Shown one piece after another: positions 1,313-27,607 of a stretch of DNA of 29,562 bases. The DNA comes from a virus. Positions within the stretch are counted from its first letter, which is position 1; each line of letters starts with the position of its first letter. A program made the translations under genes and the position numbers. Under the pieces are notes generated by a model. The model saw only the letters and a list, made by a program, of their open reading frames with translations. It did not search any database and was not told the DNA's origin. The stretch is taken from the IMG/VR virus record IMGVR_UViG_3300042880_000854, positions 1-29,562 of that record; one strand, written 5' to 3'.

Positions 1313-2293
1313 ATGGAGAATGATTTAGTGTTTGTATCAGCTCATCCTGATATTCCTTATTTTCATTGGCAGACAAAGGTTTACACAAATAATTTTATAG
1401 ACAAAGGAATTAATCCAAAAAATATTCACGTTTTATTTGTAATGGTTAATGGAAGTACAACTCCAAGTAAAGAATCGTTAGAGTTAAAACAATTTGGAAT
1501 TAATGTTCATCATTATTTGGATGATAGAAAAGATAAAAAATATATCCCAAGTTTAAGACCACTCGTATTATCAAGATGGTTAAAACAATATCCACAATTT
1601 GGTAAATATTATTTTTATCATGATTCTGACATTATATTTAGGGAATTACCCAATTTTAATAAATTACTCGAAGATGACTTTGTTTACCTTTCAGATACAT
1701 TAAGTTATATAAATTATGATTATATTAATTCTTGTGCTCAAAGATATGAAACACAATACCCTAATTTACCAAAGGGTTATTTAATACAAATGATGGCCGA
1801 TGTTGTTGGTATTTCGGTTGATTTAATAAAAGACAATAATAATAATTCAGGTGGTGCTCAATACCTAATTAAAAATACCGATTATACTTTTTGGGAAAAG
1901 GTTTATGAAGATTGTGTTATTTTATATGATAGGATTTTTCAATTTGATAAGAATAATAAAATCGGTTGGGGTGAAATACAAATGTGGACTGCTGATATGT
2001 GGTCTTTGTTGTGGAATCTTTGGTTACATAATTTTGAAACAAAAATAACATCAGAGTTAGATTTTTCTTGGGCAACTGATTCAATAGAAATTTACAATAC
2101 TAAACCAATTCTTCATATGGCTGGTGTAACTGATGACCTTAAAAACACAAAATTTTATAAAGGGGATTATATAAATTCAAATCCTTTAGATAAACTTAAA
2201 GAAAATATAAATTTTTTCGATTATATCGATAAGAATAGTTCAACAACAATGTACATTCAGATTATGAAAGAAATCATAGAAAAGGAATGTTAA
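1313..2293 (+). CDS. GT-A-type glycosyltransferase-like protein
   Basis: The 326-residue product has a central YFYHDSDIIF motif with a DxD at residues 104-106, the usual metal and sugar-nucleotide ligand of GT-A glycosyltransferases, on a predicted beta-strand/loop. Further on come SGGAQYL (179-185), a Trp-rich QMWTADMW (223-230) and KPILHMAG (264-271), an order that reminds me of eukaryotic-type O-glycosyltransferases such as the SERGT/hydroxyproline arabinosyltransferase group. The family match is by motif only. No membrane segment or signal peptide is seen, so it should act in the host cytoplasm. Start is ATG 1313, after an A/T-rich stretch without Shine-Dalgarno. It sits among virion genes, so a tail or fibre protein is a more natural target than DNA; the donor sugar cannot be told. 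Confidence 0.6.
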   Translation: MENDLVFVSAHPDIPYFHWQTKVYTNNFIDKGINPKNIHVLFVMVNGSTTPSKESLELKQFGINVHHYLDDRKDKKYIPSLRPLVLSRWLKQYPQFGKYYFYHDSDIIFRELPNFNKLLEDDFVYLSDTLSYINYDYINSCAQRYETQYPNLPKGYLIQMMADVVGISVDLIKDNNNNSGGAQYLIKNTDYTFWEKVYEDCVILYDRIFQFDKNNKIGWGEIQMWTADMWSLLWNLWLHNFETKITSELDFSWATDSIEIYNTKPILHMAGVTDDLKNTKFYKGDYINSNPLDKLKENINFFDYIDKNSSTTMYIQIMKEIIEKEC

Positions 2294-2328: not shown

Positions 2329-3849
2329 ATGTACACACTACTTGCTTTTCCATTACCATCACCAACTACACCAGTGTGTAATTGTTTGACTTTGTCATCA
2401 TATACTCAAAGTTATGGAAGTAACTTCACAACCAATTTAACTTTTGATAATTACTTTGATGGTCGAAAGTCATATTTTGGTTACGATCCTTGTTGTGGTG
2501 ATTTAAGACCAATAGAGATAAAATATAGTTCAACTTCGACAAGATGGGAAATGTTTTGGGATGGAAACTTACAGGCCTACTTAACTGATGAAACAAGTTG
2601 TCCAACAGGAACTACATGGACTAATATAGGTTCTACTATGAGTGTATTTTCCGTTTCTGCAATAACTTGTCCTACTTTGAGACAATACACACAACCTAAT
2701 TACATCCAATCAAATGAATGTAGTGTTTTAACTATACATCCTATGGGAGCTATTTGTGAACCAAGTTCACCTGTAGACCCTGGTGGTTATGGTAGTTTAA
2801 GTGTAACTATTACTGGTGGAACACCCCCATATTCGGTTACTCTATTGAATTCAACTGGTAATGTTATAAGAAATATTCCACCAACAAACTCAAGTGAAAC
2901 GAATATTAATAAGATTTTACCAGGTACTTATTTTCTTGAGATTACAGACCAATTTGGTGATTTTCAATTATTGATAAATTGTACAATTGTTGTTCCTACA
3001 ACAACCACAACAACTACGTTACAACCTTTACCACCAACTCCTTCGTTTGTCGAGTATAATATTTGTATTACACTACAAGATCCTAAGAACTTAATTCAGA
3101 TTCCATTTATAATTTCAGGATTTTCGGCAACAAATAATGTTGCCTACCCAACTTGGAAATCACCATCAGGTTATGAGATAATTTATTGGGACTTGGTAAA
3201 TCAATATTGGAAACTTTCAGCATCAACTTTAAGTCAAATTTCAACAACTTATAATCCAGTACCCCAAATTGTAAATACGACTTATCCATTACCAACATCA
3301 CCGAATACTTTCAATTCGGGTAATGTACCATTGAATAATTGGATTGTTACAAATGGCTATCCTTCTTTGACGATTACGAGTGTTAGAAATATATGTGCAA
3401 CACCAACATTGTCCTTTATAATAAACGAAGGTTGGTGGCAGGTTTGGAATTCAAATATTCCAAATCAATATAGAGGTACAAGTTGTGGTGGACAGAATCA
3501 AACACCATATTTCCAATGGCAAACCTTTAATTTACCTATAGGTGTTTCAGTAACAAGTTATGAAATTTTGTGTATTAATACATCAACTTCAGATGTTTAC
3601 TTCGATGTAACTAATATCAGTCCTTTACAAGGAAACATAAATAATAATTCAAGTTGGTTACCAGGTGCATTCATAGGTAGCACAGTTGGTGGTTCTTCCT
3701 TACAAAACTCGAATGGTTGGCAAGGACCTTGTAGTGGGGTAAATTATAGTGTTACTATGACCGCAAATCTTTCATCAGGACCAGCATTAACAAATACAAT
3801 TTATTTTATTTATTGTACTAGTACATTAAATGGTATATGTGTAATATAA
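2329..3849 (+). CDS. Beta-rich virion protein with duplicated module and SprB-like segment
   Basis: I do not recognise the 506-residue product as a named family. Residues 40-114 and about 260-356 look like two diverged copies of one module: each has an aromatic/Gly segment, an I-x-I/Y strand, then W-x-M/L (TRWEM at 71-75, QYWKL at 292-296), a later Trp and a final Cys. Between them, residues 155-215 hold an SprB-like repeat (SLSVTITGGTPPYSVTLL, then LPGTYFLEITDQFGD). A Thr run at 224-230 (PTTTTTTT) followed by a Pro-rich stretch is a likely linker. The C-terminal third (365-506) is Asn/Ser/Gly-rich with several Cys. No clear membrane span or signal peptide is seen. The setting between a glycosyltransferase-like gene and tail genes suggests a fibre or decoration protein. 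That role is inference. Confidence 0.6.
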   Translation: MYTLLAFPLPSPTTPVCNCLTLSSYTQSYGSNFTTNLTFDNYFDGRKSYFGYDPCCGDLRPIEIKYSSTSTRWEMFWDGNLQAYLTDETSCPTGTTWTNIGSTMSVFSVSAITCPTLRQYTQPNYIQSNECSVLTIHPMGAICEPSSPVDPGGYGSLSVTITGGTPPYSVTLLNSTGNVIRNIPPTNSSETNINKILPGTYFLEITDQFGDFQLLINCTIVVPTTTTTTTLQPLPPTPSFVEYNICITLQDPKNLIQIPFIISGFSATNNVAYPTWKSPSGYEIIYWDLVNQYWKLSASTLSQISTTYNPVPQIVNTTYPLPTSPNTFNSGNVPLNNWIVTNGYPSLTITSVRNICATPTLSFIINEGWWQVWNSNIPNQYRGTSCGGQNQTPYFQWQTFNLPIGVSVTSYEILCINTSTSDVYFDVTNISPLQGNINNNSSWLPGAFIGSTVGGSSLQNSNGWQGPCSGVNYSVTMTANLSSGPALTNTIYFIYCTSTLNGICVI

Positions 3850-3873: not shown

Positions 3874-4599
3874 ATGGCAATCAATTCGACTGTATCCGTT
3901 AATCAAACAATTTGTGGTTGTGATGGTGGTCTTACAATTTCAACATTTAATGGTTCACCCCCCTATCAATATTCGATTGATAACGGAATCACATATAAAC
4001 CATTTGGTATTTTTTTTAACTTATGTCAAGGAAATTATGTTGTGTTGGTTACTGATATTTCAGGAAATAGTTCGACTAATTTTGTCACTATCAATCCACC
4101 ACAAAATCCAATAACTTATACAATATACTTAAACACAACTTCTCAAGTAACAAGTTCATCTCCATCTCAGAATAGTGTTTCATATACTACATCGGTATCT
4201 GTTTTTCCTGAATTACAAAGTGGTACAACTATTTCTTTTAAGTTGAGTCACTCTAATTTAGTTAAATCATCACCTAATCTGAATTCAGTTTCAGCAACAA
4301 CAAACTCAACCCTAATTATAGACTCAAACCCAATTTCAGCAACAACATCTGGATTTACAACTGGTTCAACATATAATTCAATTCCTGGTTGTCAAAATCA
4401 AACATTATATTTAAGAACCTATAATGAGGAATGGTCAAACTTAACTTATACTTTAGGAACTAACTTTCAACTAACAACAACCAATATATTATACAAGAAT
4501 GAATTTGTTGATTGTTATGTTGGGACAAGTGAGCACAATTTTTCAATCTCTAATTTATCTATAAGTGGTTGTAGTTGTTGTAACGTAATAACATCATAA
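3874..4599 (+). CDS. SprB-like repeat protein, probable virion or fibre component
   Basis: The 241-residue product opens with one SprB-like unit (about residues 12-75): a Cys pair, GGLTISTFNGSPPYQYSID, then LCQGNYVVLVTDISGN. This is the Gly/Ser-x-PPY ... GxYxVxVTD pattern of the SprB repeat family, known from flavobacterial gliding adhesins. Residues 85-240 are very rich in Ser, Thr and Asn with alternating beta-type sequence and end in a Cys cluster (SISGCSCC). No signal peptide or membrane span is seen, so export as a host-type adhesin is unlikely and assembly into the virion fits better. ATG 3874 is the first in-frame start after the previous stop. It is unlike any named phage protein I know. 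Confidence 0.6.
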   Translation: MAINSTVSVNQTICGCDGGLTISTFNGSPPYQYSIDNGITYKPFGIFFNLCQGNYVVLVTDISGNSSTNFVTINPPQNPITYTIYLNTTSQVTSSSPSQNSVSYTTSVSVFPELQSGTTISFKLSHSNLVKSSPNLNSVSATTNSTLIIDSNPISATTSGFTTGSTYNSIPGCQNQTLYLRTYNEEWSNLTYTLGTNFQLTTTNILYKNEFVDCYVGTSEHNFSISNLSISGCSCCNVITS

Positions 4600-7908: not shown

Positions 7909-8508
7909 ATGACAAAAAAAATTGAATCTAATCCTAAAATATTAGGTCTTGACGTGTCCACCAAAACAATTGGTTGGGCACTTTTTGATATTAATACTAA
8001 AGAACTATTGGAATTGACACACGTTTCACCAATAGTTAAGCCTAAAGAAGAAAACAAAATAAAGGAACTATTTTCCAAATCTGAAATTTTTAGAACAAAA
8101 TTATTAGAATATAAAAATTTGGGAATATCAAAAGTAGTAATCGAAGAACCACTTCTTAATTCTAATAACGTTTATACTATTCAAACATTGTTGAGGTATA
8201 ATACTCTAATTTCTAAGGAGATATATGATGTTTTAGGAATTGTACCTGAATACATTTCAACTTACAATTCTCGTAAATCGGCTTTCCCTTGGTTGGTCAA
8301 AGATAACGGAAAAGGTAAGTTTGTGTTATTTGGTGGATTACCAAAGGATTGTGATAAAAAACAAATAATTTGGGAACAAGTTGCAAAAAGAGAACCCCAA
8401 ATAAATTGGGTTTATACTAAAAACAACACACTCAAAAAGGAAAACTTCGATATGAGTGACGCCTATTGTTGTGTTTTAGGTTATATGAAACAAGAAAATA
8501 TATGGTAA
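7909..8508 (+). CDS. RuvC-like Holliday junction resolvase (RNase H fold)
   Basis: The 199-residue product starts its fold with ILGLDVSTKTIGWALFD (11-27), the first strand and catalytic Asp (D15) of the RuvC group. KVVIEEPL (75-82) supplies the second acid (E79 or E80), and NFDMSDAYCCVLGY (179-192) gives the D-x2-D pair (D181, D184) before the last helix. This matches RuvC D7, E66, D138 and D141 in order and spacing style. Length is close to RuvC (about 170-190). Such enzymes cut four-way junctions symmetrically; in large phages they debranch replicated DNA before packaging. Start is ATG 7909, 3 nt after the tail gene stop, so it should be a late gene. Other RNase H-fold nucleases are possible, but the acid pattern favours a resolvase. 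Confidence 0.72.
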   Translation: MTKKIESNPKILGLDVSTKTIGWALFDINTKELLELTHVSPIVKPKEENKIKELFSKSEIFRTKLLEYKNLGISKVVIEEPLLNSNNVYTIQTLLRYNTLISKEIYDVLGIVPEYISTYNSRKSAFPWLVKDNGKGKFVLFGGLPKDCDKKQIIWEQVAKREPQINWVYTKNNTLKKENFDMSDAYCCVLGYMKQENIW

Positions 8509-8512
8509 AATT

Positions 8513-8540
8513 AAACCCCACTTTTTAGGTGGGGTTTTTT
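8513..8540. terminator. Rho-independent terminator between convergent blocks
   Basis: A perfect 9-bp stem, AAACCCCAC (8513-8521) and GTGGGGTTT (8529-8537), with a 7-nt loop is followed by more T to 8540. It lies 4 nt behind the resolvase stop and 1 nt beyond the stop of the leftward adhesin gene, so it can serve both strands. The rightward U-tract is better than the leftward one (TTTAATTTT). Confidence 0.85.
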
Positions 8541-8541
8541 A

Positions 8542-11500
8542 TTATGGTACTGCAGTATCTCCAACTATTGTCCAAGAATAAACTGCAATTATATTAGACC
8601 TTGATGTGTCAGCAATGCTTCCTATTTGGTATTGTAATCCTTGTACCCCAAACGTGACACCGAACTGAAGTATAGGTAATGTATTCCAAGCTATTAATAA
8701 TGTCTGATAATTAGTTTGATTCATTCCACAATTATCAAGCATATTATCCATAGCTGAGACATTAGAAACATCCCAAGAATCTAAAGCCTGATTGAAGTTG
8801 AATGCTGAATTGAACATATCCATCATATTTGTGACACTTGAAACATCCCAATTGTTAACTGGTTGGTTGAATACACTGGCAGATTCAAACATAGCACTCA
8901 TATTAGTTACACCACTTACATTCCAAGAATTAAGATTTTGATTGAAGGCTATTGCTGACTCAAACATACCTTGCATTGTTGTAACACCTGAAGTATCCCA
9001 ATTATTAAGTGGTTGATTGAAAAGCGTTGTATTTGCAAACAAACCATTCATTAGAACAACGTTACTTGTATTCCAAGTATTTAATGGTTGGTTAAATGCT
9101 GAGGCACCATCGAATGTTCCGTTCATATTAGTTACATTTGAAACATCCCAAATGTCAATATCTTGGTTGAAACTTGTAGCATTTTGGAACATTGCACCCA
9201 TTTGAATGTTGTTCGACATATCCCAAGAACTAATATCTTGATTGAAACCAGTTGCACCTAAAAACATTCTTGTGGTATCAGTACATGCTGATGTATTCCA
9301 ATTATTTAATGGTTGATCGAATGCAGTAACCCCCCTGAAAGTACTATTCATCGTTGTTACATTAGATACATCCCAACTATTCAAGTCACCATCAAACGAC
9401 ACACTATCCCTAAAAGTACTACTTAAACTTGTTATTGTTGATGTATCCCAATATTGACTATTATTTATTGTTGTTAATGACGTACAATCTCTAAACGTAC
9501 TTTGTAAATTGTTTGTTGTAGTCAAATTTGGCACGTCAGAAACAGAGGATAAATCCAAATTACTACAACCATAAAAATGACCAGTCACATTTCCAGGTTC
9601 AAATATACCCCATTGTTGAACTGAAAGAATTTTATCTCTGTCTCCTCCATTATTAAATGTCCATCCAGACAACTGATTAAATATTTGTATAGTATAGATA
9701 CCAGTCGATGAATATGTGTGTTCCGTTAACGGATCATTCCATGTATTAATTGTGTCAGTACTACCATCTCCCCAATCAACGATGAAATCATAATTCCCAG
9801 TAGAATCTAATGGTAATTGAAACTTATCATTAGCTGAAGACCCCATTGATGTTAGTGTTGTATCTATATCAAATATAAATGGTGCCAACACTGGTGGTGA
9901 AGTATCCTCACAACTAATGTCATAATATATTTTAATTCCTACAATAACATCAACATCGATATATTCAGCAGGTGGGTTAGGTATTGTTCCAATAGTTATT
10001 TTATTTTCCACAGGTTCAATAATGACATCACTTATACCTGAAAAACTTAAAAGAAGTGACCTAAGTGTATAGTAATAATCATCGTCACCAGGAAAGTCAT
10101 TCAAACTTGTTCCAGTATAAAATGTCGTTGCTGTTGTTAGTAATGAAACTCCTGATAATACAACATCAACTTCAAATATTGCTTGATTCAGAACACAATT
10201 TGTATCACCAGATGTCAAATCTGTGAAACCTTCAATTAACATTTGTTGTGGACCTTTTCTGATATTTTGACCACTATCTATTAGTTCTCCTTCAAATATT
10301 GTATAAGTTTGGAAAGAAGAAACTAAATTATATCCAATAAGTGTTGTTGTTCTTGTTTGAACACAACCATAAAAATCTGTAATTGTTAAAGTATATGTGC
10401 CTGCGGTTAATGCCGAAACTGTTAAACCAGTTTGTCCATTAACATTTGGACTCCAATTAAGTGTGAATGGTGGTGTCCCATCTGTAATAAATGCTGTTAT
10501 TTCACCATTATTACTGAAACTTGGATTTGTACTTGATAAAACAAAATCAAGTGAGCCTAAGTTTGTTATTGTAAATGGTAGGGTTTGAGTACATAAATTA
10601 GCATCAGTAACCACAGCAGTGTAATTACCAGCAAACAAATTAGTAAATGAGTATGTAAGACCTGTAACGTTTAAGATATCGTAACCATTAATTTGGTATC
10701 TATATGGTGCAGTACCTCCAGTTGTTAATCCTAAAGTGACCGAACCAGTTGGTTGATTACAACTTGAACTTGTTGTTTGTGCAGTTAGTGTGTATAATAC
10801 ATTATTACTTACAACGACTGAACCTGAATAAGGACACAGATTTGATGAATCACTAATTGTTAATGTATAAGTATCAGAGCTTAATGATGTAAAGATAAAT
10901 CCAGCATTTTGTAAAGGTTGGATTCCTATTTGTGAATCGTTGTTTGAGTCAGTTAGAGTGTAAGTATAGGGTGCAGCACCTCCAAAGACAGAAACTGAAA
11001 TTTGACCATCTAAATTATTACAATTGGAATTATCAACGTTAATTGTTACAACAGATAATGCACTTGGTGTTAATAAAGTAGTATATGCTGTAGATTGACA
11101 TAATCCCGCATCCGTAACCGTAACTGAAAAATAACCAGCAGGTAATCCTGAAAAAGTATATGAAGTTGCAAATGTTATAACAATCTCACCATTTGAACCT
11201 TGAATATGATATGGAGCAGTTCCACCTGAGATATATATTGTTGATTGTCCAGTTGCGGAAAAACAAGTTGGTTGTACATCATTAAGTAAAATTGTTCCTA
11301 ATGTTGGAACTTGACCAATTATAGCCCCTTGTGATGTTACACACCCAAGTCCATCTGTAACTGTAACAGAATATGAACCATTCGTTAATCCCGTAATAGA
11401 AGATGTTGTTTCACCATTAGGTAACCAAGAATAAGTATATGGTGGTGTACCAGTTAAACCAGTTACATATAATGAACCCAAACTGTTTACACAGGCCGAA

Positions 11501-12060
11501 TTATTAATTTGATATAAACCAAAATTTAATGTTGATGAACTTTTAACTATACAACTCTCACTTTTTCCTGTACAACCACCACCATCATCAGCAATTACAT
11601 AATATGTTCCAGCAGATAGTGAAGTAAATGTATTACTTGTGTTTTGGGTCGTTGCTGAACTAATGAATCCACTTGTCAACTCATAAAGATAATAAGTGGA
11701 AGCAAAATACAGATTTGATGTTGCAGCAGTTAAAGAACCATTGTCAAAACCACAACTTGTGTTGGTACTATCTATTAATGATACACAAGAACCTGAAGAT
11801 ATATAAACATTTAACAATGAATATGTATTTCCCGAAGGACAACTATCTACTACATAGAATGTATATGTTCCAGCAGATAAAGAGTTTATACTATATCCAG
11901 TAACACCCGCACCTAATGGAAATGTTCCCAATGATGGACTAACCCAATCGATAGTATAATCAGGTGCAGTACCATTAATAGTAATACCAAACGCACCACT
12001 ATTAGTATTTGAACAATCACCAGTTACCCCCGTTAATGTTACTATTAAACTACAAGCCAT
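8542..12060 (-). CDS. SprB-repeat / PKD-like / DUF285-repeat protein, candidate distal tail adhesin
   Basis: The 1172-residue product is built of modules. Residues 1-575 are about seven SprB-like units of 75-90 residues (GTPPYTYSW ... GLTNGSYSVTVTDGLGC is typical). Residues 576-725 are a beta-rich stretch I cannot assign. About 740-795 is a PKD-like domain (FIVDWGDGSTD ... EHTYSSTGIYTIQIF). Residues 870-1119 are ten exact 25-residue BspA-like/DUF285 units (SWDVSNVTNM...MF..A..FNQPLN). The last 50 residues form a separate cap. SprB repeats and DUF285 belong to cell-surface adhesins of Bacteroidota, but no signal peptide or secretion tail is seen, and the ATG overlaps the stop of the baseplate-type gene upstream (TAATG). 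A virion adhesin or receptor-binding fibre is the likeliest role; a host-surface mimic is possible. Confidence 0.65.
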   Translation of the reverse strand: MACSLIVTLTGVTGDCSNTNSGAFGITINGTAPDYTIDWVSPSLGTFPLGAGVTGYSINSLSAGTYTFYVVDSCPSGNTYSLLNVYISSGSCVSLIDSTNTSCGFDNGSLTAATSNLYFASTYYLYELTSGFISSATTQNTSNTFTSLSAGTYYVIADDGGGCTGKSESCIVKSSSTLNFGLYQINNSACVNSLGSLYVTGLTGTPPYTYSWLPNGETTSSITGLTNGSYSVTVTDGLGCVTSQGAIIGQVPTLGTILLNDVQPTCFSATGQSTIYISGGTAPYHIQGSNGEIVITFATSYTFSGLPAGYFSVTVTDAGLCQSTAYTTLLTPSALSVVTINVDNSNCNNLDGQISVSVFGGAAPYTYTLTDSNNDSQIGIQPLQNAGFIFTSLSSDTYTLTISDSSNLCPYSGSVVVSNNVLYTLTAQTTSSSCNQPTGSVTLGLTTGGTAPYRYQINGYDILNVTGLTYSFTNLFAGNYTAVVTDANLCTQTLPFTITNLGSLDFVLSSTNPSFSNNGEITAFITDGTPPFTLNWSPNVNGQTGLTVSALTAGTYTLTITDFYGCVQTRTTTLIGYNLVSSFQTYTIFEGELIDSGQNIRKGPQQMLIEGFTDLTSGDTNCVLNQAIFEVDVVLSGVSLLTTATTFYTGTSLNDFPGDDDYYYTLRSLLLSFSGISDVIIEPVENKITIGTIPNPPAEYIDVDVIVGIKIYYDISCEDTSPPVLAPFIFDIDTTLTSMGSSANDKFQLPLDSTGNYDFIVDWGDGSTDTINTWNDPLTEHTYSSTGIYTIQIFNQLSGWTFNNGGDRDKILSVQQWGIFEPGNVTGHFYGCSNLDLSSVSDVPNLTTTNNLQSTFRDCTSLTTINNSQYWDTSTITSLSSTFRDSVSFDGDLNSWDVSNVTTMNSTFRGVTAFDQPLNNWNTSACTDTTRMFLGATGFNQDISSWDMSNNIQMGAMFQNATSFNQDIDIWDVSNVTNMNGTFDGASAFNQPLNTWNTSNVVLMNGLFANTTLFNQPLNNWDTSGVTTMQGMFESAIAFNQNLNSWNVSGVTNMSAMFESASVFNQPVNNWDVSSVTNMMDMFNSAFNFNQALDSWDVSNVSAMDNMLDNCGMNQTNYQTLLIAWNTLPILQFGVTFGVQGLQYQIGSIADTSRSNIIAVYSWTIVGDTAVP
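8704..9453 (-). repeat. Ten tandem 75-bp units encoding DUF285/BspA-like repeats
   Basis: Each unit encodes exactly 25 residues beginning with aromatic-W/x-D/N-V/T-S and ending in FNQPLN-like sequence. Units differ from one another at many positions, most strongly in the first, third, fourth and last, so the array is old and not freshly expanded. Confidence 0.85.
10336..12060 (-). repeat. About seven SprB-type coding repeats
   Basis: Seven diverged units of 75-90 residues make up residues 1-575 of the adhesin candidate. Shared landmarks are a Cys near the unit start, a G-G/T-x-PY segment, and GxYxxxVTD followed by Cys. The first two units lack the PPY landmark and are the most diverged. Confidence 0.7.
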
Positions 12061-15000
12061 TAACTACAATATATTTGAAAGTTTATTCCGATATCAATAG
12101 TAAATACTAATCCGTTGTCATCAGTTTGACAAGTTTGATTATATACTATAACTTTATCGTTATCAGTTAAATAATAATCATATCCCATATTTTTCAAAGA
12201 GTCTAAAGAAGAAATTAAAGCGTTATAGTATTGAGTTTGACTTGGTGCATTGAAAGGTGTGAATGAATATGTCGAACCATTGAAAAATGGTAGTTGAACC
12301 ATAGTAACATTGTTAATTTTTAACTCTATGTACCACTCACTCGTCAAAGTATTGAGAACACAATCATTCAATTCATAACCATTATTCGTTAAATAGTTAT
12401 TCAATACTTTACCTAAAATACCAGTAATAGAAGTAACTTGAGGATCTGATTGCCATGGATAAATTGAACACTCAACTGATTCTATATTACAATCGTATTC
12501 AAACACATTAGTAATTAATGCACCTGGTCTGTTAAGTGCTGGTCTACCTTTGAATCCACCACCATTATTAGCAGATGTATTACTTGGTGGGAATTTTATC
12601 GATGGAACACTTACACCACTTGGTGGTGTTGTAACTAATACCCCACCTTGAGGATTCCTAATTGGTGGTACAGTTTGTGTTCCCCCTTCATTACCTGCAA
12701 TAAGTTGACATCCTTCTTGTCTTCTCCATACAAATTTTTGTCTATGGAATATCGAATTTTCCATCTTGATACCAGTATTCCATATAGTTGTTGCCGGCAC
12801 CATTTGTTCAATCAATCTAATCCAATAATCACCCATACCATTAACATATTCAATCATATTTTCATACTTGAAATTGTTGTTGGTTAAATTTGCAAACTCC
12901 TCAGATTGAATATATTTCCAATAAATTGATTCTAATGTTGGGTAACCCCCAGTTTTACCATTCGATGCAAATTGTCTATTTCTTACATTAATTGTATTTT
13001 GCCAAAATGTCTGAGCAAATTCAAAAAATGTTTTACGTTTTGGTTGTGGATTTATTATAGTCCAGTCAACTCCGCCCCTATCAGGGTATATTGTGTAAGG
13101 ATTAGGGTCACAATAAGTCGGTGGTACATAGTTAAGACCTTCGTTAGGTATTGGGTAATTATATTTTCTTGACATCGCCCAAACATCATAAACAATACCT
13201 TGTGCTGGATTCATAAAAATGTCAACATTTTTGACATTCATAACCAACTTATCATCATTAACAAAATATCTTGCATTGAGATTTCCATCCAAGTTACTTC
13301 TCAATCCAGTTTCAGAATCGTACCAACTCTTATTATTATCGATTTGAGGTGTTAAAACAAACCCCAAATTCATAAATGGAAATTCTCTATATCGATTCAA
13401 ATATGTTTGTCCATAAGTTGGTGGTAATAACGTTGTTTGTAAGTTTGTACTCTGACCAGTGAAAGTACTGAAAGTTGGTTCAACAACTGCAGGACCTCTA
13501 TGTTGTGGTGTTTGTTCAAACCATCCACCACCAATTTGAAAGAAGTAATCATCTGAATCAGGTGGTGTTGATGGATATCCCTCGTTGTCAATAGGATAAT
13601 CAGACAATGAAAGATTAACACTTGTTATTGAATTAGTTGTTGTGAATCCTGTGTAAGTTATACCCTGAATAGAAAACAAATTTCCTTCTTCAAGTGTGGG
13701 TGTTTCAGAAATGTAAGTACCCCCTGATATTGTTGCCCAATATGTGTTAAACTGACCTAAATTAATTTTGTCATCAGCCAAATAAATATATTCGTTGAAT
13801 TCTGTTAGAGCCTCTGGTGCCCCAATCATTCTCAACAATCCCTCGATAGATTTTCTTGTACCTTTGGCTTTGAAGAGATATGCTGAGTTTAATATGATGT
13901 TTCTATAATACTGATAATTTAACTCATCTGGTGAGGTTTGTGTTGATACTCCAGCAAAGTTAGATGTATCATTGTTTGTTTGTCCAAATACTGAGGTTAG
14001 AAAATCATCACTTGATACTGGTGAAATATTTGTACTCCATCCTAATGTTAATGCTAAATTTCTTAATAACTGAGATGGTATATCATTTCCAACGTTATAG
14101 TTTACTGATGGCATAAATGAAAGTGCTGTGATGTATTTTTGTACATCATCGAAACTTCTACCATAAATTTGTAAAACCTTTTCTACTTTTCTTCCATCAG
14201 TATCAAAATCATTAAAAGCACCAGTAGTTAAAAATCTTGATATTAAGTTCGTTTTATTACTATCATAGAATTCACTAATTTGGTTTAGTGAAATTAAATA
14301 TTGTTGGAAATTGGCAGTTAAAATGTCTATATTCCATCTTCCATATAATGGCCAACTCAAAAATCTATTCTCAATATAGAAAGTACCATCTTCAGCCTCT
14401 ATAGGAACTTTGAAACTTGATGTGTATATTGGGGAAACATTCCTATTCAAAAGAAAGTTTTCCACTTCATCTAAATCCTCGTTGAATGTTTTTGATACAA
14501 CAGAATCATTAGGTCTAACAATAATATCATCATAAGAAATACTTGAACCTGAAAATGGATTACCTGCAACATAAATTGTTAAAACACCTGATGTAAGACT
14601 TGTTGTTGGGATAATTCTTGTTACGTTATACCCATTACCCAAATAATATAAAGAGTAATTAGCATATTGGAGAGTCATATCTCTTAACGGAGAAACTTGT
14701 ACCTCTCTGAGTTGAAGATTTCTTGTTGAGTTGATAGTAAAATCAACCTCAAATGGATTTCTAAGTCTTGCTACATCTAAGTTGAAGTTTGTTTCGTTTG
14801 TTACATCATTATAAATAATATTTGTTGCCGTTAGGCCAGACGTATAGTTTAATCCTATTGCAGTAGATTCAATTGCCGCAGGATAGTAACTTATAATTGT
14901 TGTAATTGCGGCTGACATTCTCTTAACCATCGACCCATAAGTTGTATAGTTAAGAACTTGTGTTAAATCAAAGTTAGGATAAACCTTGAAATTATTTTCA

Positions 15001-15233
15001 ATAATACTTTTTGCTTGTTCAACATCATTGATACCCATAGACTCCAAACTCATAGGATTGGAGAATACACCAGTACTGAAAGTTCTATTTACCTTTTCAG
15101 TTACTGCAGTTGTAAAACTAAAATTACCTTGGGTCAACCCACCTCCAGCAACAAGTTGAACTCCAACTAAATTGTCTGAAAAAGTGTCAGCCCCTGATGC
15201 ACCTTGTGGTGGACAAGTAAAATTATTGGCCAT
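12060..15233 (-). CDS. Large baseplate protein with P2 gpI / T4 gp7-like motif
   Basis: The 1057-residue product contains ILNSAYLFKAKGTRKSIEGL at 447-466, continuing LRMIGAP to 473. This strongly recalls the 'lY..KGT..al...l...lG' core of the Tail_P2_I (gpI) family, whose members correspond to T4 gp7 in the baseplate wedge. The length is close to T4 gp7 (1032). Just before it are helical, charged stretches (320-410); residues 100-310 and 480-850 are beta-rich, and 880-920 is a Pro/Gly/Asn-rich flexible part. The C-terminal 140 residues look like a small separate domain. Both ends overlap neighbours as TAATG, so it is translationally linked to the 302-residue protein and the adhesin candidate. 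gp7-like wedge protein is a reasoned guess from motif, size and operon; baseplate or tail protein is much surer. Confidence 0.55.
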   Translation of the reverse strand: MANNFTCPPQGASGADTFSDNLVGVQLVAGGGLTQGNFSFTTAVTEKVNRTFSTGVFSNPMSLESMGINDVEQAKSIIENNFKVYPNFDLTQVLNYTTYGSMVKRMSAAITTIISYYPAAIESTAIGLNYTSGLTATNIIYNDVTNETNFNLDVARLRNPFEVDFTINSTRNLQLREVQVSPLRDMTLQYANYSLYYLGNGYNVTRIIPTTSLTSGVLTIYVAGNPFSGSSISYDDIIVRPNDSVVSKTFNEDLDEVENFLLNRNVSPIYTSSFKVPIEAEDGTFYIENRFLSWPLYGRWNIDILTANFQQYLISLNQISEFYDSNKTNLISRFLTTGAFNDFDTDGRKVEKVLQIYGRSFDDVQKYITALSFMPSVNYNVGNDIPSQLLRNLALTLGWSTNISPVSSDDFLTSVFGQTNNDTSNFAGVSTQTSPDELNYQYYRNIILNSAYLFKAKGTRKSIEGLLRMIGAPEALTEFNEYIYLADDKINLGQFNTYWATISGGTYISETPTLEEGNLFSIQGITYTGFTTTNSITSVNLSLSDYPIDNEGYPSTPPDSDDYFFQIGGGWFEQTPQHRGPAVVEPTFSTFTGQSTNLQTTLLPPTYGQTYLNRYREFPFMNLGFVLTPQIDNNKSWYDSETGLRSNLDGNLNARYFVNDDKLVMNVKNVDIFMNPAQGIVYDVWAMSRKYNYPIPNEGLNYVPPTYCDPNPYTIYPDRGGVDWTIINPQPKRKTFFEFAQTFWQNTINVRNRQFASNGKTGGYPTLESIYWKYIQSEEFANLTNNNFKYENMIEYVNGMGDYWIRLIEQMVPATTIWNTGIKMENSIFHRQKFVWRRQEGCQLIAGNEGGTQTVPPIRNPQGGVLVTTPPSGVSVPSIKFPPSNTSANNGGGFKGRPALNRPGALITNVFEYDCNIESVECSIYPWQSDPQVTSITGILGKVLNNYLTNNGYELNDCVLNTLTSEWYIELKINNVTMVQLPFFNGSTYSFTPFNAPSQTQYYNALISSLDSLKNMGYDYYLTDNDKVIVYNQTCQTDDNGLVFTIDIGINFQIYCS

Positions 15234-16174: not shown

Positions 16175-17350
16175 TTATGTTTTTATAACGTTGAAAAAAC
16201 CATACCCATATTTGGTTAAGTCCCCAACATTATCAACCTCACCCAACCTCATAAATCTTTCCAATGCTGAGTTTTTACCCCTCTCAACAAGTACAGCCGA
16301 TTGTATTTCAGGTTCATCAACCACGTTAAGTAGAAATTCTTGTTTTGTTATTGCTGAACAAACAACATCAATTGGTGTTACACCTGAAAGAACAAAAATT
16401 GTTGTTCCATCTTCATAATCATAGTAATCCATACCATTAATTGTGTAAGCAGTATAAGGTAATTGTGGGTTTCCACTATATACAATACCAACAACACCAG
16501 TTGAACCAGTAACTTGTTCATCAGCTTTATATTTACCACCATAAAGACTATTCTTAGGCCCGTATTGTGATAAGTCTTCGATTGATGACTTTGTAAAACC
16601 CGTTATTATTAAAGGACCTGAAAGATATGGATTTGTCCCTCCTTGGTATATTTCACAAGTTGAGTCACCACTAAACAAAAAGTCATATTCTAAAGGTGTA
16701 CCTGACCAACTACCACCTTGTGGAATGAAAAATGCAGTTCCACTTGGATTGTCAATTGTAACACCAGTAAATGGAACATTAACTTTCTTTTTAATCAAGT
16801 TATTTCCCCAAGGACTCATACCACTAAATGTAATTGTATATTCACCAGGGGTTAAATAAGTGTGGTTATATGGGGATGGTAAGTTAGAATCAACAACTAC
16901 AACAGCTGAGTTGTCCCCCCAATCCAAATAGTACTTTGAAAAACTTAAAAATTTTTTTAATTCGAGCTCCGATGTATTGTAAAAAGAACAAACTAATGGA
17001 GGTGCTGTACTACCTGATACTAAGAAATTTAACATAGTATCTTTTTGTAATATAAAACCATCAAATACAGAATAATATCCGAAATCGACTGCTGTTTGTG
17101 TCAAAAATACTGGTATGGTTAAACCAGTTAATAATGAGGAACCATCAGTTCCACCTGATAATATATCAGTTAAAGCAGAATATGCTATTGTAAAACCAGT
17201 GTAGTTTTGGGTTGTTGTTGTAGTCGTTACTTCACAACAAGGGTCTATCGTTACACCAGTTGGTGAATTACCTGCATTATATTTTACAAAGAATTTATCT
17301 CCATTGATAAATTCTGGTGAAATTCTTATATGAAATTTTCTATCTTGCAT
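16175..17350 (-). CDS. PKD-domain phage virion protein
   Basis: The 391-residue product has a PKD/Ig-like segment at about 135-193: YYLDWGDNSAVVVVD, then YNHTYLTPGEYTITFSG. The WGDNS and HTYxxPGEYTI landmarks are those of PKD domains, which usually serve as stiff surface spacers. Before it, residues 38-48 hold a CC-x2-TTTTTT linker like the Thr run in the rightward 506-residue protein. The C-terminal 80 residues (QEFLLNVVDEPEIQSAVLVE, then RFMRLGEVDNVGDLTKYGYG) are helical and unlike the rest, and may attach the protein to the baseplate. Its ATG overlaps the preceding stop (TAATG). No named family is recognised; structural protein is likely from context. Confidence 0.55.
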   Translation of the reverse strand: MQDRKFHIRISPEFINGDKFFVKYNAGNSPTGVTIDPCCEVTTTTTTQNYTGFTIAYSALTDILSGGTDGSSLLTGLTIPVFLTQTAVDFGYYSVFDGFILQKDTMLNFLVSGSTAPPLVCSFYNTSELELKKFLSFSKYYLDWGDNSAVVVVDSNLPSPYNHTYLTPGEYTITFSGMSPWGNNLIKKKVNVPFTGVTIDNPSGTAFFIPQGGSWSGTPLEYDFLFSGDSTCEIYQGGTNPYLSGPLIITGFTKSSIEDLSQYGPKNSLYGGKYKADEQVTGSTGVVGIVYSGNPQLPYTAYTINGMDYYDYEDGTTIFVLSGVTPIDVVCSAITKQEFLLNVVDEPEIQSAVLVERGKNSALERFMRLGEVDNVGDLTKYGYGFFNVIKT

Positions 17351-25305: not shown

Positions 25306-27144
25306 TCAAGAAAAATTAACTGTTTTGAGATTTTTAACCCTAACAACAATATCTTTGTTTGGAAATCTAACTTGATAAGTTTGACTTGGTTCAGCAAAAA
25401 TAGTGTCGTCAACCAATTCGATTTGTTTAGTGGTGGAATCCGAATATCTTTGTGAAGTTTGTGATGATGAATATTGTCCCCCAACTTTATTGAAGATTTG
25501 AATGTCTGAAACTGAAAGTACACCATTTTGAGATTGGACTAATCTTCTTATTTCTGAGACATTTACGTTTTGACCCATTTGTCTATTACCTGGGTCCATA
25601 TATTGTGATACTATATCAATTATTTGAGTTACGAAAGCACCTTGATTTTGACTATTATCCAAAACAACATCAATATTAAATCCTAAATCAACAACATTTG
25701 CAGTTTCAACTGAGACATAATCATTAATCATTCTATAATTAGACAAGTAATTAGCGACATTACTCTTCAATGTATTTGAAACGATTTCTGTTAGCCTACC
25801 TGAATCATCGTAGGACAACATCTTAATTTTAAGTTTGTTATTTTCTTCAGTAACAGAAACTTTAGCAGGTGCGCCAAATTGTGATGGCATCGTTCTGATT
25901 ACAGATTCATAGTCGTTGATTGTTACAGCTCTATTTTGTGCTGCAAAGTTATAAGTGACTAAGTTTCTAACCTCTTCAGTTGTTGGGGCTCCAGCACCAC
26001 CAATTGCTGCTGTAACATTAGTACATGATAAAGAATTAACTACACTTGTATTTACACTTGAAGAAGGCCCATTAACAGCAAAAGAAACAGTCCCGATGTT
26101 GTTAATAACGTTTACACCTAAATTACTACCAGTACCACCACCAACTCTATATTGTATAAACAAAGTTGTGTTTGCTTTTAAGGTACTACCTAATGCTAAG
26201 TTATCAGAATATTTGTATAAATTAAGTTTGAATCCATTTCTTGCAAATTCAGCCAATTGTTCATCCGCTGATTGACTTCCACCACCAAAGGTCATTTTTA
26301 GAAAACCTTCTGGTGTGTATTCGGTAATAAATTTAGTATTTGTTTGTATATATCTACCTACTTTAATACCAGGGTTATCTGATACTTTGGTGGGGTCTTC
26401 AACAAAAACTCTATCCTCAATTAATGCTTTTACTTCATACCATCTATTGTCCAAACCTTGAAATTCTTGTGGTGAAGGAACACTGGCATATTGTGTACCA
26501 TCCTTTAACAATACACTTGTTACACCCAAAACATTTCTTTCGGGTAAAAATAATTCAAAAAATGGTCTTACATCATTTGGTGTTACCACCCTTTTGAAAA
26601 CTTTTGTAGTACCATTAACTACAGTTTCTCTTTTAGTTATTGTATAATTTAATAGTTTGTTGTTACTATCAAAATTTGGTATTTTAAGTCTATTTGGAAA
26701 TCCATCACCACCTACAGCTGAAGCAAAATCGATATCATAAACAGTTTCAAATACTTGTCCAGCACCATTAACTTGAGCACCTCTTCTTAATATCCCACAA
26801 TATCTTAAATCTTCTTTGTCACCAAAAGCCGGAACTATGATACTAAAATCAACTAAAGCTACTGAAGGTCTTTGACCTGGTACTTTAAGACCATAAGTTC
26901 TTGCAATATTGAAAACTGAGGATCTTTGTTGGGCATATTGTAGAATTGTTTCTTGAATACTTCTATCAATATTGTATTGTAAATTATCAGATACTGCAGC
27001 GTTCAAATCTAACAAAGCAGAAAATACTGAAGCGTCATTGAAGTTATCAATTAACTCAGGATAATAAGTTCTTGTAAAGTTTATTAATTCAGTTCTAATT
27101 GCCTGAAAATCCCTGGTTGTATATGATATTTTTTTGTTAGCCAT
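25306..27144 (-). CDS. Baseplate wedge protein gp6-like (baseplate J family)
   Basis: The 612-residue product matches T4 gp6 in layout and size (660). The N-terminus, ISYTTRDFQAIRTELINFTR then YYPELIDNFNDASVFSALLD (6-45), is the conserved opening of gp6/baseplate J proteins in myoviruses. Residues about 380-430 (GGAGAPTTEEVRNLVTYNFA, NRAVTINDYESVIRTMPSQF, APAKVSV) form the J-type core. In T4 six gp6 dimers form the ring that holds the wedges together around the hub. The gene starts 4 nt after the gp25-like stop, as expected for wedge partners. No Shine-Dalgarno is seen. The start at ATG 27144 is the only sensible one. Confidence 0.9.
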   Translation of the reverse strand: MANKKISYTTRDFQAIRTELINFTRTYYPELIDNFNDASVFSALLDLNAAVSDNLQYNIDRSIQETILQYAQQRSSVFNIARTYGLKVPGQRPSVALVDFSIIVPAFGDKEDLRYCGILRRGAQVNGAGQVFETVYDIDFASAVGGDGFPNRLKIPNFDSNNKLLNYTITKRETVVNGTTKVFKRVVTPNDVRPFFELFLPERNVLGVTSVLLKDGTQYASVPSPQEFQGLDNRWYEVKALIEDRVFVEDPTKVSDNPGIKVGRYIQTNTKFITEYTPEGFLKMTFGGGSQSADEQLAEFARNGFKLNLYKYSDNLALGSTLKANTTLFIQYRVGGGTGSNLGVNVINNIGTVSFAVNGPSSSVNTSVVNSLSCTNVTAAIGGAGAPTTEEVRNLVTYNFAAQNRAVTINDYESVIRTMPSQFGAPAKVSVTEENNKLKIKMLSYDDSGRLTEIVSNTLKSNVANYLSNYRMINDYVSVETANVVDLGFNIDVVLDNSQNQGAFVTQIIDIVSQYMDPGNRQMGQNVNVSEIRRLVQSQNGVLSVSDIQIFNKVGGQYSSSQTSQRYSDSTTKQIELVDDTIFAEPSQTYQVRFPNKDIVVRVKNLKTVNFS

Positions 27145-27148
27145 ATTT

Positions 27149-27607
27149 TTATATGTTAATAATTACAAAATCACTTGAGTTAAATGCCGAATCTGTGATT
27201 GTATAATCTATTTTAATTTTTGCAGTATGTTCTAATTGTCCTATGTTTGTAACAACAAATTCCCTTTCACCAGCGTCATTTACAAAAGTTCCCTTGTTTT
27301 CCTCACCATCAGATGCCGCAGTTATAGAGATATTTGTGATTGTTAAACCCGGTAGATATTCACCCACAGAATCTCTTATTTCCGCTTCAATGTCTGAAAA
27401 GGTAGGTCCATCCAATGGTTCGAATATGTACTCATACAATCTTGTACCAAAATCAGGTAAGTAATATCTTGTACCCTTTCTCGTTAGTAATAAATGTACC
27501 AAATTACTTCTAATTTCTTCATCACTGGTTTGTGATAGAGACAAGTAATTACCCTGATATGAGTCCCTAAATGGGAAATTTATTCCATATGTTTTACCAT
27601 CAGCCAT
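27149..27607 (-). CDS. Baseplate wedge protein gp25-like (GPW/gp25 family)
   Basis: The 152-residue product is close to T4 gp25 (132) in length and shows the family core: IRSNLVHLLLTRKGTRYYLP (32-51), DFGTRLYEYIFEP (52-64), then a helix with SDIEAEIRDSVGEYLPGLTI (71-91). The 'R.nl..ll.T..GeR...pdfG..l..~lFep' pattern is diagnostic of GPW/gp25. In contractile tails gp25 sits in the inner wedge core with gp6 and gp7 and helps nucleate the sheath. The gene begins the baseplate run: a gap of 80 nt with a hairpin and two ATTTAT-type motifs separates it from nrdA, and gp6-like follows after 4 nt. Confidence 0.9.
   Translation of the reverse strand: MADGKTYGINFPFRDSYQGNYLSLSQTSDEEIRSNLVHLLLTRKGTRYYLPDFGTRLYEYIFEPLDGPTFSDIEAEIRDSVGEYLPGLTITNISITAASDGEENKGTFVNDAGEREFVVTNIGQLEHTAKIKIDYTITDSAFNSSDFVIINI

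What the first reader, a model, noticed from the sequence alone, without database searches (positions are those of the whole stretch)
8542..12060. Phage-borne chimera of SprB gliding-adhesin repeats, PKD-like domain and BspA/DUF285 repeats
Three module types typical of Bacteroidota surface proteins are fused in one gene that ends a baseplate operon by a TAATG overlap and lacks a visible signal peptide. SprB carries flavobacteria over surfaces and is exposed on the cell. A phage fibre made of the same repeats could bind the host adhesin layer, travel with it, or mimic it. I know of no described phage receptor-binding protein with this layout.
Basis: partly seen in the sequence, partly recalled or inferred. 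Interest (0 to 1): 0.75.

Follow-up and report, generated by a model that had tools for sequence, protein, structure and literature searches.

The report
Fixed phage stalk with swappable tips
An uncultured freshwater phage, probably of Bacteroidota bacteria, encodes a baseplate-linked adhesin whose stalk of seven immunoglobulin-like repeats keeps the same length in nearly all its relatives, while the end domain is swapped cleanly for unrelated ones, which is how such phages probably change the cells they bind.

Summary
ORF 8542-12060 (1,172 aa) has seven SprB/Ig-like repeats, a PKD-like domain and DUF285 leucine-rich repeats. It is the last gene of a baseplate operon (TAATG overlap) and shows no secretion signal. 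It is homologous to the C-terminal domain of the neighbouring baseplate-operon protein.

About 85 full-length relatives in IMG/VR show what the gene is. The first ~710 residues are nearly constant in length (708-723 aa in 82 of 85) and end at a conserved Y-x-I-x-C. Everything after that is exchangeable: absent, PKD+DUF285, beta-propeller-like, CBM-like, or unknown modules on Thr/Pro linkers. In several pairs, related phages with homologous flanks differ in this tip, with breakpoints at the connector boundary and the stop codon. The core tree needs at least 13 tip changes. The same cassette also caps a different gene near the baseplate in one relative.

Best reading: a receptor-binding protein with a fixed Ig stalk and a tip-exchange slot, probably for Bacteroidota hosts. 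The SprB repeats are scaffold; specificity should lie in the tip. Mimicry of, or travel on, the gliding adhesin is not supported. Virion location and receptor are inferred. New variant of a known kind.

The parts
8542..12060 (-). complete gene of the stalk-and-tip adhesin, 1,172 aa
   Evidence: independent contig L097/L103
12058..12062 (-). TAATG stop/start overlap with the upstream baseplate-operon gene (translational coupling inferred)
   Evidence: found in 78 of 92 relatives
10330..12060 (-). stalk: seven SprB/Ig-like repeats, aa 1-577
   Evidence: Pfam PF13573 E=3.2e-17; AF2 seven beta-sandwiches; leave-one-out repeat test
10252..10329 (-). flexible linker aa 578-603
   Evidence: pLDDT below 50 at 576-590 and 592-601
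9907..10251 (-). alpha/beta connector domain aa 604-718 (order alpha-beta-beta-alpha-beta-beta-beta)
   Evidence: homologous to C-terminal domain of 12060-15233: hhalign probability 96.5, E=9.4e-10, best of 60 column shuffles 4.7; hmmsearch E=4e-8; same order of elements in both models
8545..9906 (-). exchangeable tip aa 719-1172 (PKD + DUF285 + cap)
   Evidence: absent or replaced in relatives with homologous flanks
9655..9888 (-). PKD-like beta-sandwich aa 725-802
   Evidence: PKD sub-threshold; AF2
8725..9630 (-). DUF285 / PARCEL leucine-rich repeat solenoid aa 811-1112
   Evidence: PF03382 E=1.2e-94; TIGR02167; AF2
8545..8724 (-). C-terminal cap aa 1113-1172
   Evidence: AF2 pLDDT about 77-90; 65-83% identical among six related tips
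8512..8538 (-). hairpin plus T-run between the convergent genes (bidirectional terminator, inferred); conserved right-hand flank of the tip slot
12060..15233 (-). upstream baseplate-operon protein, 1,057 aa
12063..12500 (-). its C-terminal domain (aa 912-1057), paralogue of the connector
27149..27607 (-). gp25-like baseplate wedge protein, marks the operon
   Evidence: Pfam GPW_gp25 E=1e-10
25306..27144 (-). baseplate J-like wedge protein
   Evidence: Pfam Baseplate_J E=4.7e-7; PHROG baseplate wedge subunit

Best explanation
A receptor-binding adhesin of a contractile-tailed phage. A fixed-length stalk (seven SprB/Ig-like repeats) is followed, after a flexible linker, by a connector domain that closes the conserved part. 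The connector acts as a socket to which an exchangeable tip is fused; in this phage the tip is a PKD-like domain, a DUF285 leucine-rich solenoid and a cap. The tip makes the specific contact with the cell surface; the stalk carries it at a set distance from the baseplate. Tips are exchanged by recombination between conserved flanks (connector on one side, terminator and the convergent resolvase gene on the other). Shown here: domain layout, constancy of the stalk, clean exchange of the tip, connector homology to the neighbouring protein. Inferred: virion location, receptor binding, Bacteroidota host, recombination route.
For: Last gene of a gp25/J baseplate operon, with a conserved 1-bp overlap to the preceding gene. 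Stalk 708-723 aa in 82 of 85 relatives at about 42-79% identity; tips 2-790 aa. Clean breakpoints in pairs with homologous flanks: L098/L100 (95.4% over 15.46 kb; homology ends in the last codons before the L100 stop and resumes at the stop), L181/L182 (99.0% and 96.2% flanks), L126/L127 (82%, stopping at the connector end and resuming at the stop), window relative L097/L087 (77%). The tree of the conserved part needs at least 13 tip-state changes, 8 for DUF285 alone, of which strongly supported branches force 6. Tips include DUF285, Fib_succ_major, CBM_4_9-like and beta-propeller-like modules. The cassette also caps another gene in L087. Connector homology. No signal peptide or T9SS tail.
Against: No virion proteomics or image exists for this uncultured clade, and no isolate in the phage collection carries the upstream gene. 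The upstream protein gave a poor model and no significant PDB match, so its place in the baseplate is not fixed. About a fifth of relatives (17 of 84) have no tip, so infection does not always need one here; another protein may bind the receptor in those phages.
Confidence: 0.75

Rival explanations
1. One reading: the SprB-like repeats themselves engage, ride on or mimic the host's gliding adhesin layer.
For: SprB-type repeats and a GhpA-like fold are typical of Bacteroidota surface adhesins. Gliding Capnocytophaga swarms can carry phages (PMC10434198), though there lambda was moved by fluid flow.
Against: The repeats are the constant part across the family while tips change. They match generic Ig-like phage decoration and whisker domains. 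Foldseek also matches many unrelated Ig chains.
Confidence: 0.07
2. A side or accessory fibre (whisker or decoration-like) that gives weak, non-specific attachment to cells or polymers, not the decisive receptor-binding protein.
For: Ig-like decoration and whisker hits; tips with carbohydrate-binding-type modules; 17 of 84 relatives lack a tip.
Against: Position at the end of the baseplate operon with a conserved overlap; the pattern of conserved base and swapped end is that of host-range determinants.
Confidence: 0.15
3. A protein displayed on or secreted from the infected cell (a lysogenic-conversion-like adhesin) that happens to sit next to baseplate genes.
For: PKD and DUF285 domains are usually found in bacterial surface proteins (established knowledge of these families).
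Against: No signal peptide, lipobox or T9SS tail; coupled by overlap to a baseplate-operon gene; its connector is a paralogue of that neighbour's C-terminal domain.
Confidence: 0.03

Closest known systems
crAss-like phage BACON tandem-repeat tail protein (PMC6949934)
   Same: Ig-like modules of Bacteroidota surface proteins in tandem in a tail-associated phage protein with a poorly conserved C-terminus; proposed to bind the host
   Different: Other domain family (BACON, not SprB/PF13573); here the repeat number is fixed, a connector closes the stalk, and clean exchange of whole tips is shown
Phage tail fibres with exchangeable distal tips (T4 gp37, Mu S/U type; my own knowledge)
   Same: Conserved proximal part, variable distal part exchanged by recombination, expected to decide host range
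   Different: Stalk is a chain of Ig-like domains, not a trimeric beta-fibre as far as predicted; tips are whole bacterial-type surface modules
PARCEL / DUF285 / TIGR02167 repeats (PMC2996958) and DUF285 proteins of jumbo phages such as Vibrio phage pir03 (PMC7765460)
   Same: The tip solenoid belongs to this repeat family, known to spread horizontally as a modular, variable protein part; already reported in phages
   Different: There described as whole ORFs of unknown place; here a cassette fused to a defined socket in a baseplate-operon gene
Bacteroidota SprB / GhpA grappling-hook adhesins
   Same: SprB-type Ig-like repeat fold; GhpA fragments are the best PDB fold matches
   Different: Those are exported, much larger adhesins (own knowledge); this protein has no export signals and a fixed repeat number
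A0A6J5LD72, 'SprB repeat', uncultured Caudovirales phage
   Same: 714 aa, 35% identical over 732 columns; same length as the tip-less relatives
   Different: Only an automatic annotation; no function described

Membership tests
SprB repeat (PF13573) | sequence match over curated cut-off | tested here: met
   62.3 bits against cut-off 28, five stretches
SprB gliding adhesin (whole protein) | signal peptide for export | tested here: not met
   N-terminus lies in the first Ig repeat; K/R in the first 15 aa in only 7 of 93 relatives; no dedicated predictor was available
SprB gliding adhesin (whole protein) | type IX secretion C-terminal domain | tested here: not met
   no hit in Pfam or NCBIfam; C-terminus is the exchanged tip cap
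DUF285 / PARCEL repeat protein | match to PF03382 and TIGR02167 over cut-offs | tested here: met
   312.6 bits (cut-off 25) and 66.8 bits (cut-off 30)
DUF285 / PARCEL repeat protein | dyad symmetry of the coding repeats | not tested
   DNA-level palindromy was not examined
PKD domain (PF00801) | sequence match over curated cut-off | tested here: inconclusive
   14.4-18.1 bits against 23.5; WGDG motif; beta-sandwich in model
Phage receptor-binding protein with exchangeable tip | coded in tail/baseplate gene block | tested here: met
Phage receptor-binding protein with exchangeable tip | conserved base, distal part replaced between close relatives | tested here: met
Phage receptor-binding protein with exchangeable tip | present in the virion | not testable with these tools
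   no isolate, no proteomics
Phage receptor-binding protein with exchangeable tip | binds a receptor and decides host range | not testable with these tools
   needs binding and infection assays
crAss BACON tail protein | BACON domains | tested here: not met
   no BACON hit in Pfam
T4-like trimeric long tail fibre | homotrimeric fibrous fold | tested here: inconclusive
   monomer model only: chain of Ig-like domains plus solenoid; oligomeric state not modelled

The most novel reading that the evidence does not exclude
A general tip-exchange slot in a large clade of aquatic, probably Bacteroidota-infecting phages: a connector domain, paralogous to the C-terminal domain of the adjacent baseplate-operon protein, serves as a standard socket, and a common pool of tip cassettes (PARCEL, Fib_succ_major, CBM-like, propellers) captured from bacterial surface proteins circulates among phages and even between two genes of one phage.
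Probability: 0.4. Interest if true: 0.7.

Novelty: new variant of a known kind. Interest (0 to 1): 0.52.

Why it matters
It turns an odd chimera into a readable rule: in these uncultured phages the part to look at for host specificity starts right after the conserved Y-x-I-x-C boundary. Metagenomic contigs could then be sorted by tip, hosts predicted, and the tips expressed as ready-made binders for freshwater Bacteroidota. It also gives PARCEL/DUF285 repeats, whose role in phages is undescribed, a likely place and job, and shows a fixed-length Ig stalk keeping its size while the tip changes.

Tried and rejected
Bacteroidota promoter motif (TTTG-N17-21-TAnnTTTG): 67 found against 42-70 expected, no signal. 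Fold search of the upstream protein: low-confidence model, nothing at E<=0.001. Sequence search of the upstream profile in the PDB: none. Isolate phages: no match of the upstream gene; the stalk only in one 642-kb metagenomic phage; for Flavobacterium phage immuto only the J-like wedge protein matched, at 24%. First whole-alignment hhalign of target and upstream protein was insignificant; the homology showed only with deeper sub-alignments. Compensation (tip-less adhesin, cassette moved to the other gene) was seen only for L087, not in general. Assembly artefact rejected: the same adhesin, with or without its tip, occurs in several contigs (L083/L084/L086; L089/L091/L092/L096/L099). T9SS tail in the neighbour 2329-3849 (TIGR04183 E=5.6e-6) is internal (aa 159-208) and read as Ig-like resemblance. 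Single-linkage clusters of tips mix modules because tips are mosaic, so only none / DUF285 / other were used as states in the tree test.

Full report
Observation. The ORF at 8542-12060 is real, complete and on the minus strand. It overlaps the stop of the upstream gene as TAATG and is the last gene of a minus-strand block that starts with gp25-like and J-like baseplate proteins. Pfam gives DUF285 E=1.2e-94, SprB E=3.2e-17 and a sub-threshold PKD match; NCBIfam gives the PARCEL repeat TIGR02167. A leave-one-out test shows seven related Ig-like repeats, each well above 500 shuffles. The AlphaFold2 model from 75 sequences (mean pLDDT 82.9, pTM 0.46) shows seven beta-sandwiches (1-577), a poorly ordered linker (about 576-601), an alpha/beta domain (604-718), a short hinge (719-724), a PKD-like sandwich (725-802), a solenoid (811-1112) and a cap. 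The low pTM means that the domains, not their mutual placement, are reliable.

Relatives. The upstream gene and the target led to over a hundred IMG/VR contigs, some 200-320 kb long; 84-85 non-identical full-length adhesins were compared. The first ~710 residues are conserved from the initiator Met to a conserved Y-x-I-x-C. Their length is 708-723 in 82 of 85. What follows is 2 to 790 residues long and of unrelated kinds: nothing (17), PKD+DUF285 (11), other (56), among them Fib_succ_major (best E=1e-42), CBM_4_9-like and beta-propeller-like matches (some below Pfam cut-offs), and many unknown modules behind Thr/Pro-rich linkers.

Exchange. L098 and L100 are 95.4% identical over 15.46 kb; one has a 425-codon PKD+DUF285 tip, the other stops just after the connector, and homology resumes at the stop codon and terminator. 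L181/L182 (99.0% and 96.2% flanks), L126/L127, L114/L113, L114/L116 and L087/L097 show the same picture at 77-85% or higher identity, with breaks at or within a few dozen bases of the connector end. On a maximum-likelihood tree of the conserved part, tip state changes at least 13 times, DUF285 gain or loss 8 times with 6 forced by strongly supported branches. The tree is a quick search with some long branches, so the counts are indicative. The sister of the window gene, L087, lacks the tip but carries a PKD+DUF285 cassette at the end of another gene, the positional counterpart of window gene 2329-3849.

Connector. Deep sub-alignments show that aa 591-720 and the last ~145 aa of the upstream protein are homologous: hhalign probability 96.5, E=9.4e-10, against at most 4.7 in 60 column shuffles and 20.5 for any other stretch of that protein tested, the latter overlapping the start of the same domain. 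A connector HMM finds upstream proteins at E down to 4e-8. Both models have the order alpha-beta-beta-alpha-beta-beta-beta at usable confidence. The duplicated domain ties the adhesin to the baseplate operon beyond mere neighbourhood. That it is a docking or socket domain is inference.

Host and location. GC is 32%; 0 of 324 ATG-started ORFs in the clade have AGGAG or GGAGG at -20 to -4, as expected for Bacteroidota (general knowledge), though the low G content makes chance matches rare too. The only bacterial relatives of the stalk found were three Bacteroidota MAGs, 26-35% identical over the repeats. GhpA of Aureispira heads the PDB fold hits. A Bacteroidota host is therefore likely but not proven. 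No signal peptide, lipobox or T9SS tail was seen, so a virion protein is much more likely than a cell-surface one.

Mechanism. Most likely (0.75) a receptor-binding adhesin: fixed stalk, connector, exchangeable tip. In the window phage the variable face of the DUF285 solenoid would touch the receptor (inferred).

Novelty. Swappable fibre tips and Ig-like repeats in phage tail proteins are known, DUF285 in phages is reported, and BACON repeats in crAss-like phages are a close analogue. What I found no description of is the combination: a fixed-length SprB-type stalk, a connector shared with the neighbouring baseplate-operon protein, and PARCEL cassettes among the exchanged tips. Literature searches covered open-access full texts only.

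Noticed in passing
window 7909-8508 (+): RuvC-like resolvase gene (phrog_159 E=2.1e-8) lies convergently right behind the tip slot, across a shared hairpin terminator at 8512-8538; a possible aid to, or mere flank for, tip exchange.
   Followed up: partly
window 1313-2293 (+): Protein of phrog_4417 (unknown function) that looks to me like a glycosyltransferase, set among virion genes; might modify the Ser/Thr-rich virion proteins.
   Followed up: no
window 2329-3849 and 3874-4599 (+): Two more genes of the neighbourhood with single SprB/Ig-like repeats; counterparts of 2329-3849 vary from 233 to 744 aa, and one (L087:20014-22248) ends in the PKD+DUF285 cassette.
   Followed up: partly
window 16175-17350 (-): Baseplate-operon protein with a PKD-like domain (E=0.0078), whose relatives are recognised by the tip's PKD profile.
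   Followed up: no
L114:8001-11186: The tip ends in a Hint/intein-like domain (Hom_end_hint E=0.0043, below cut-off) with a CFIKGTKI start; unusual for a phage adhesin.
   Followed up: partly
contig of L156 (272 kb), 15.9-21.5 kb, 65-66 kb and 74-75 kb: 25 DUF285 matches in several large ORFs away from the baseplate; the 208-kb contig of L148 has a 2,051-aa DUF285 ORF.
   Followed up: no
L171, L184, L150, L151 tip ends: Tips ending in a motif such as FQDGDEYIFQ / FMDGDPYYFQ, shared by otherwise different tips.
   Followed up: no
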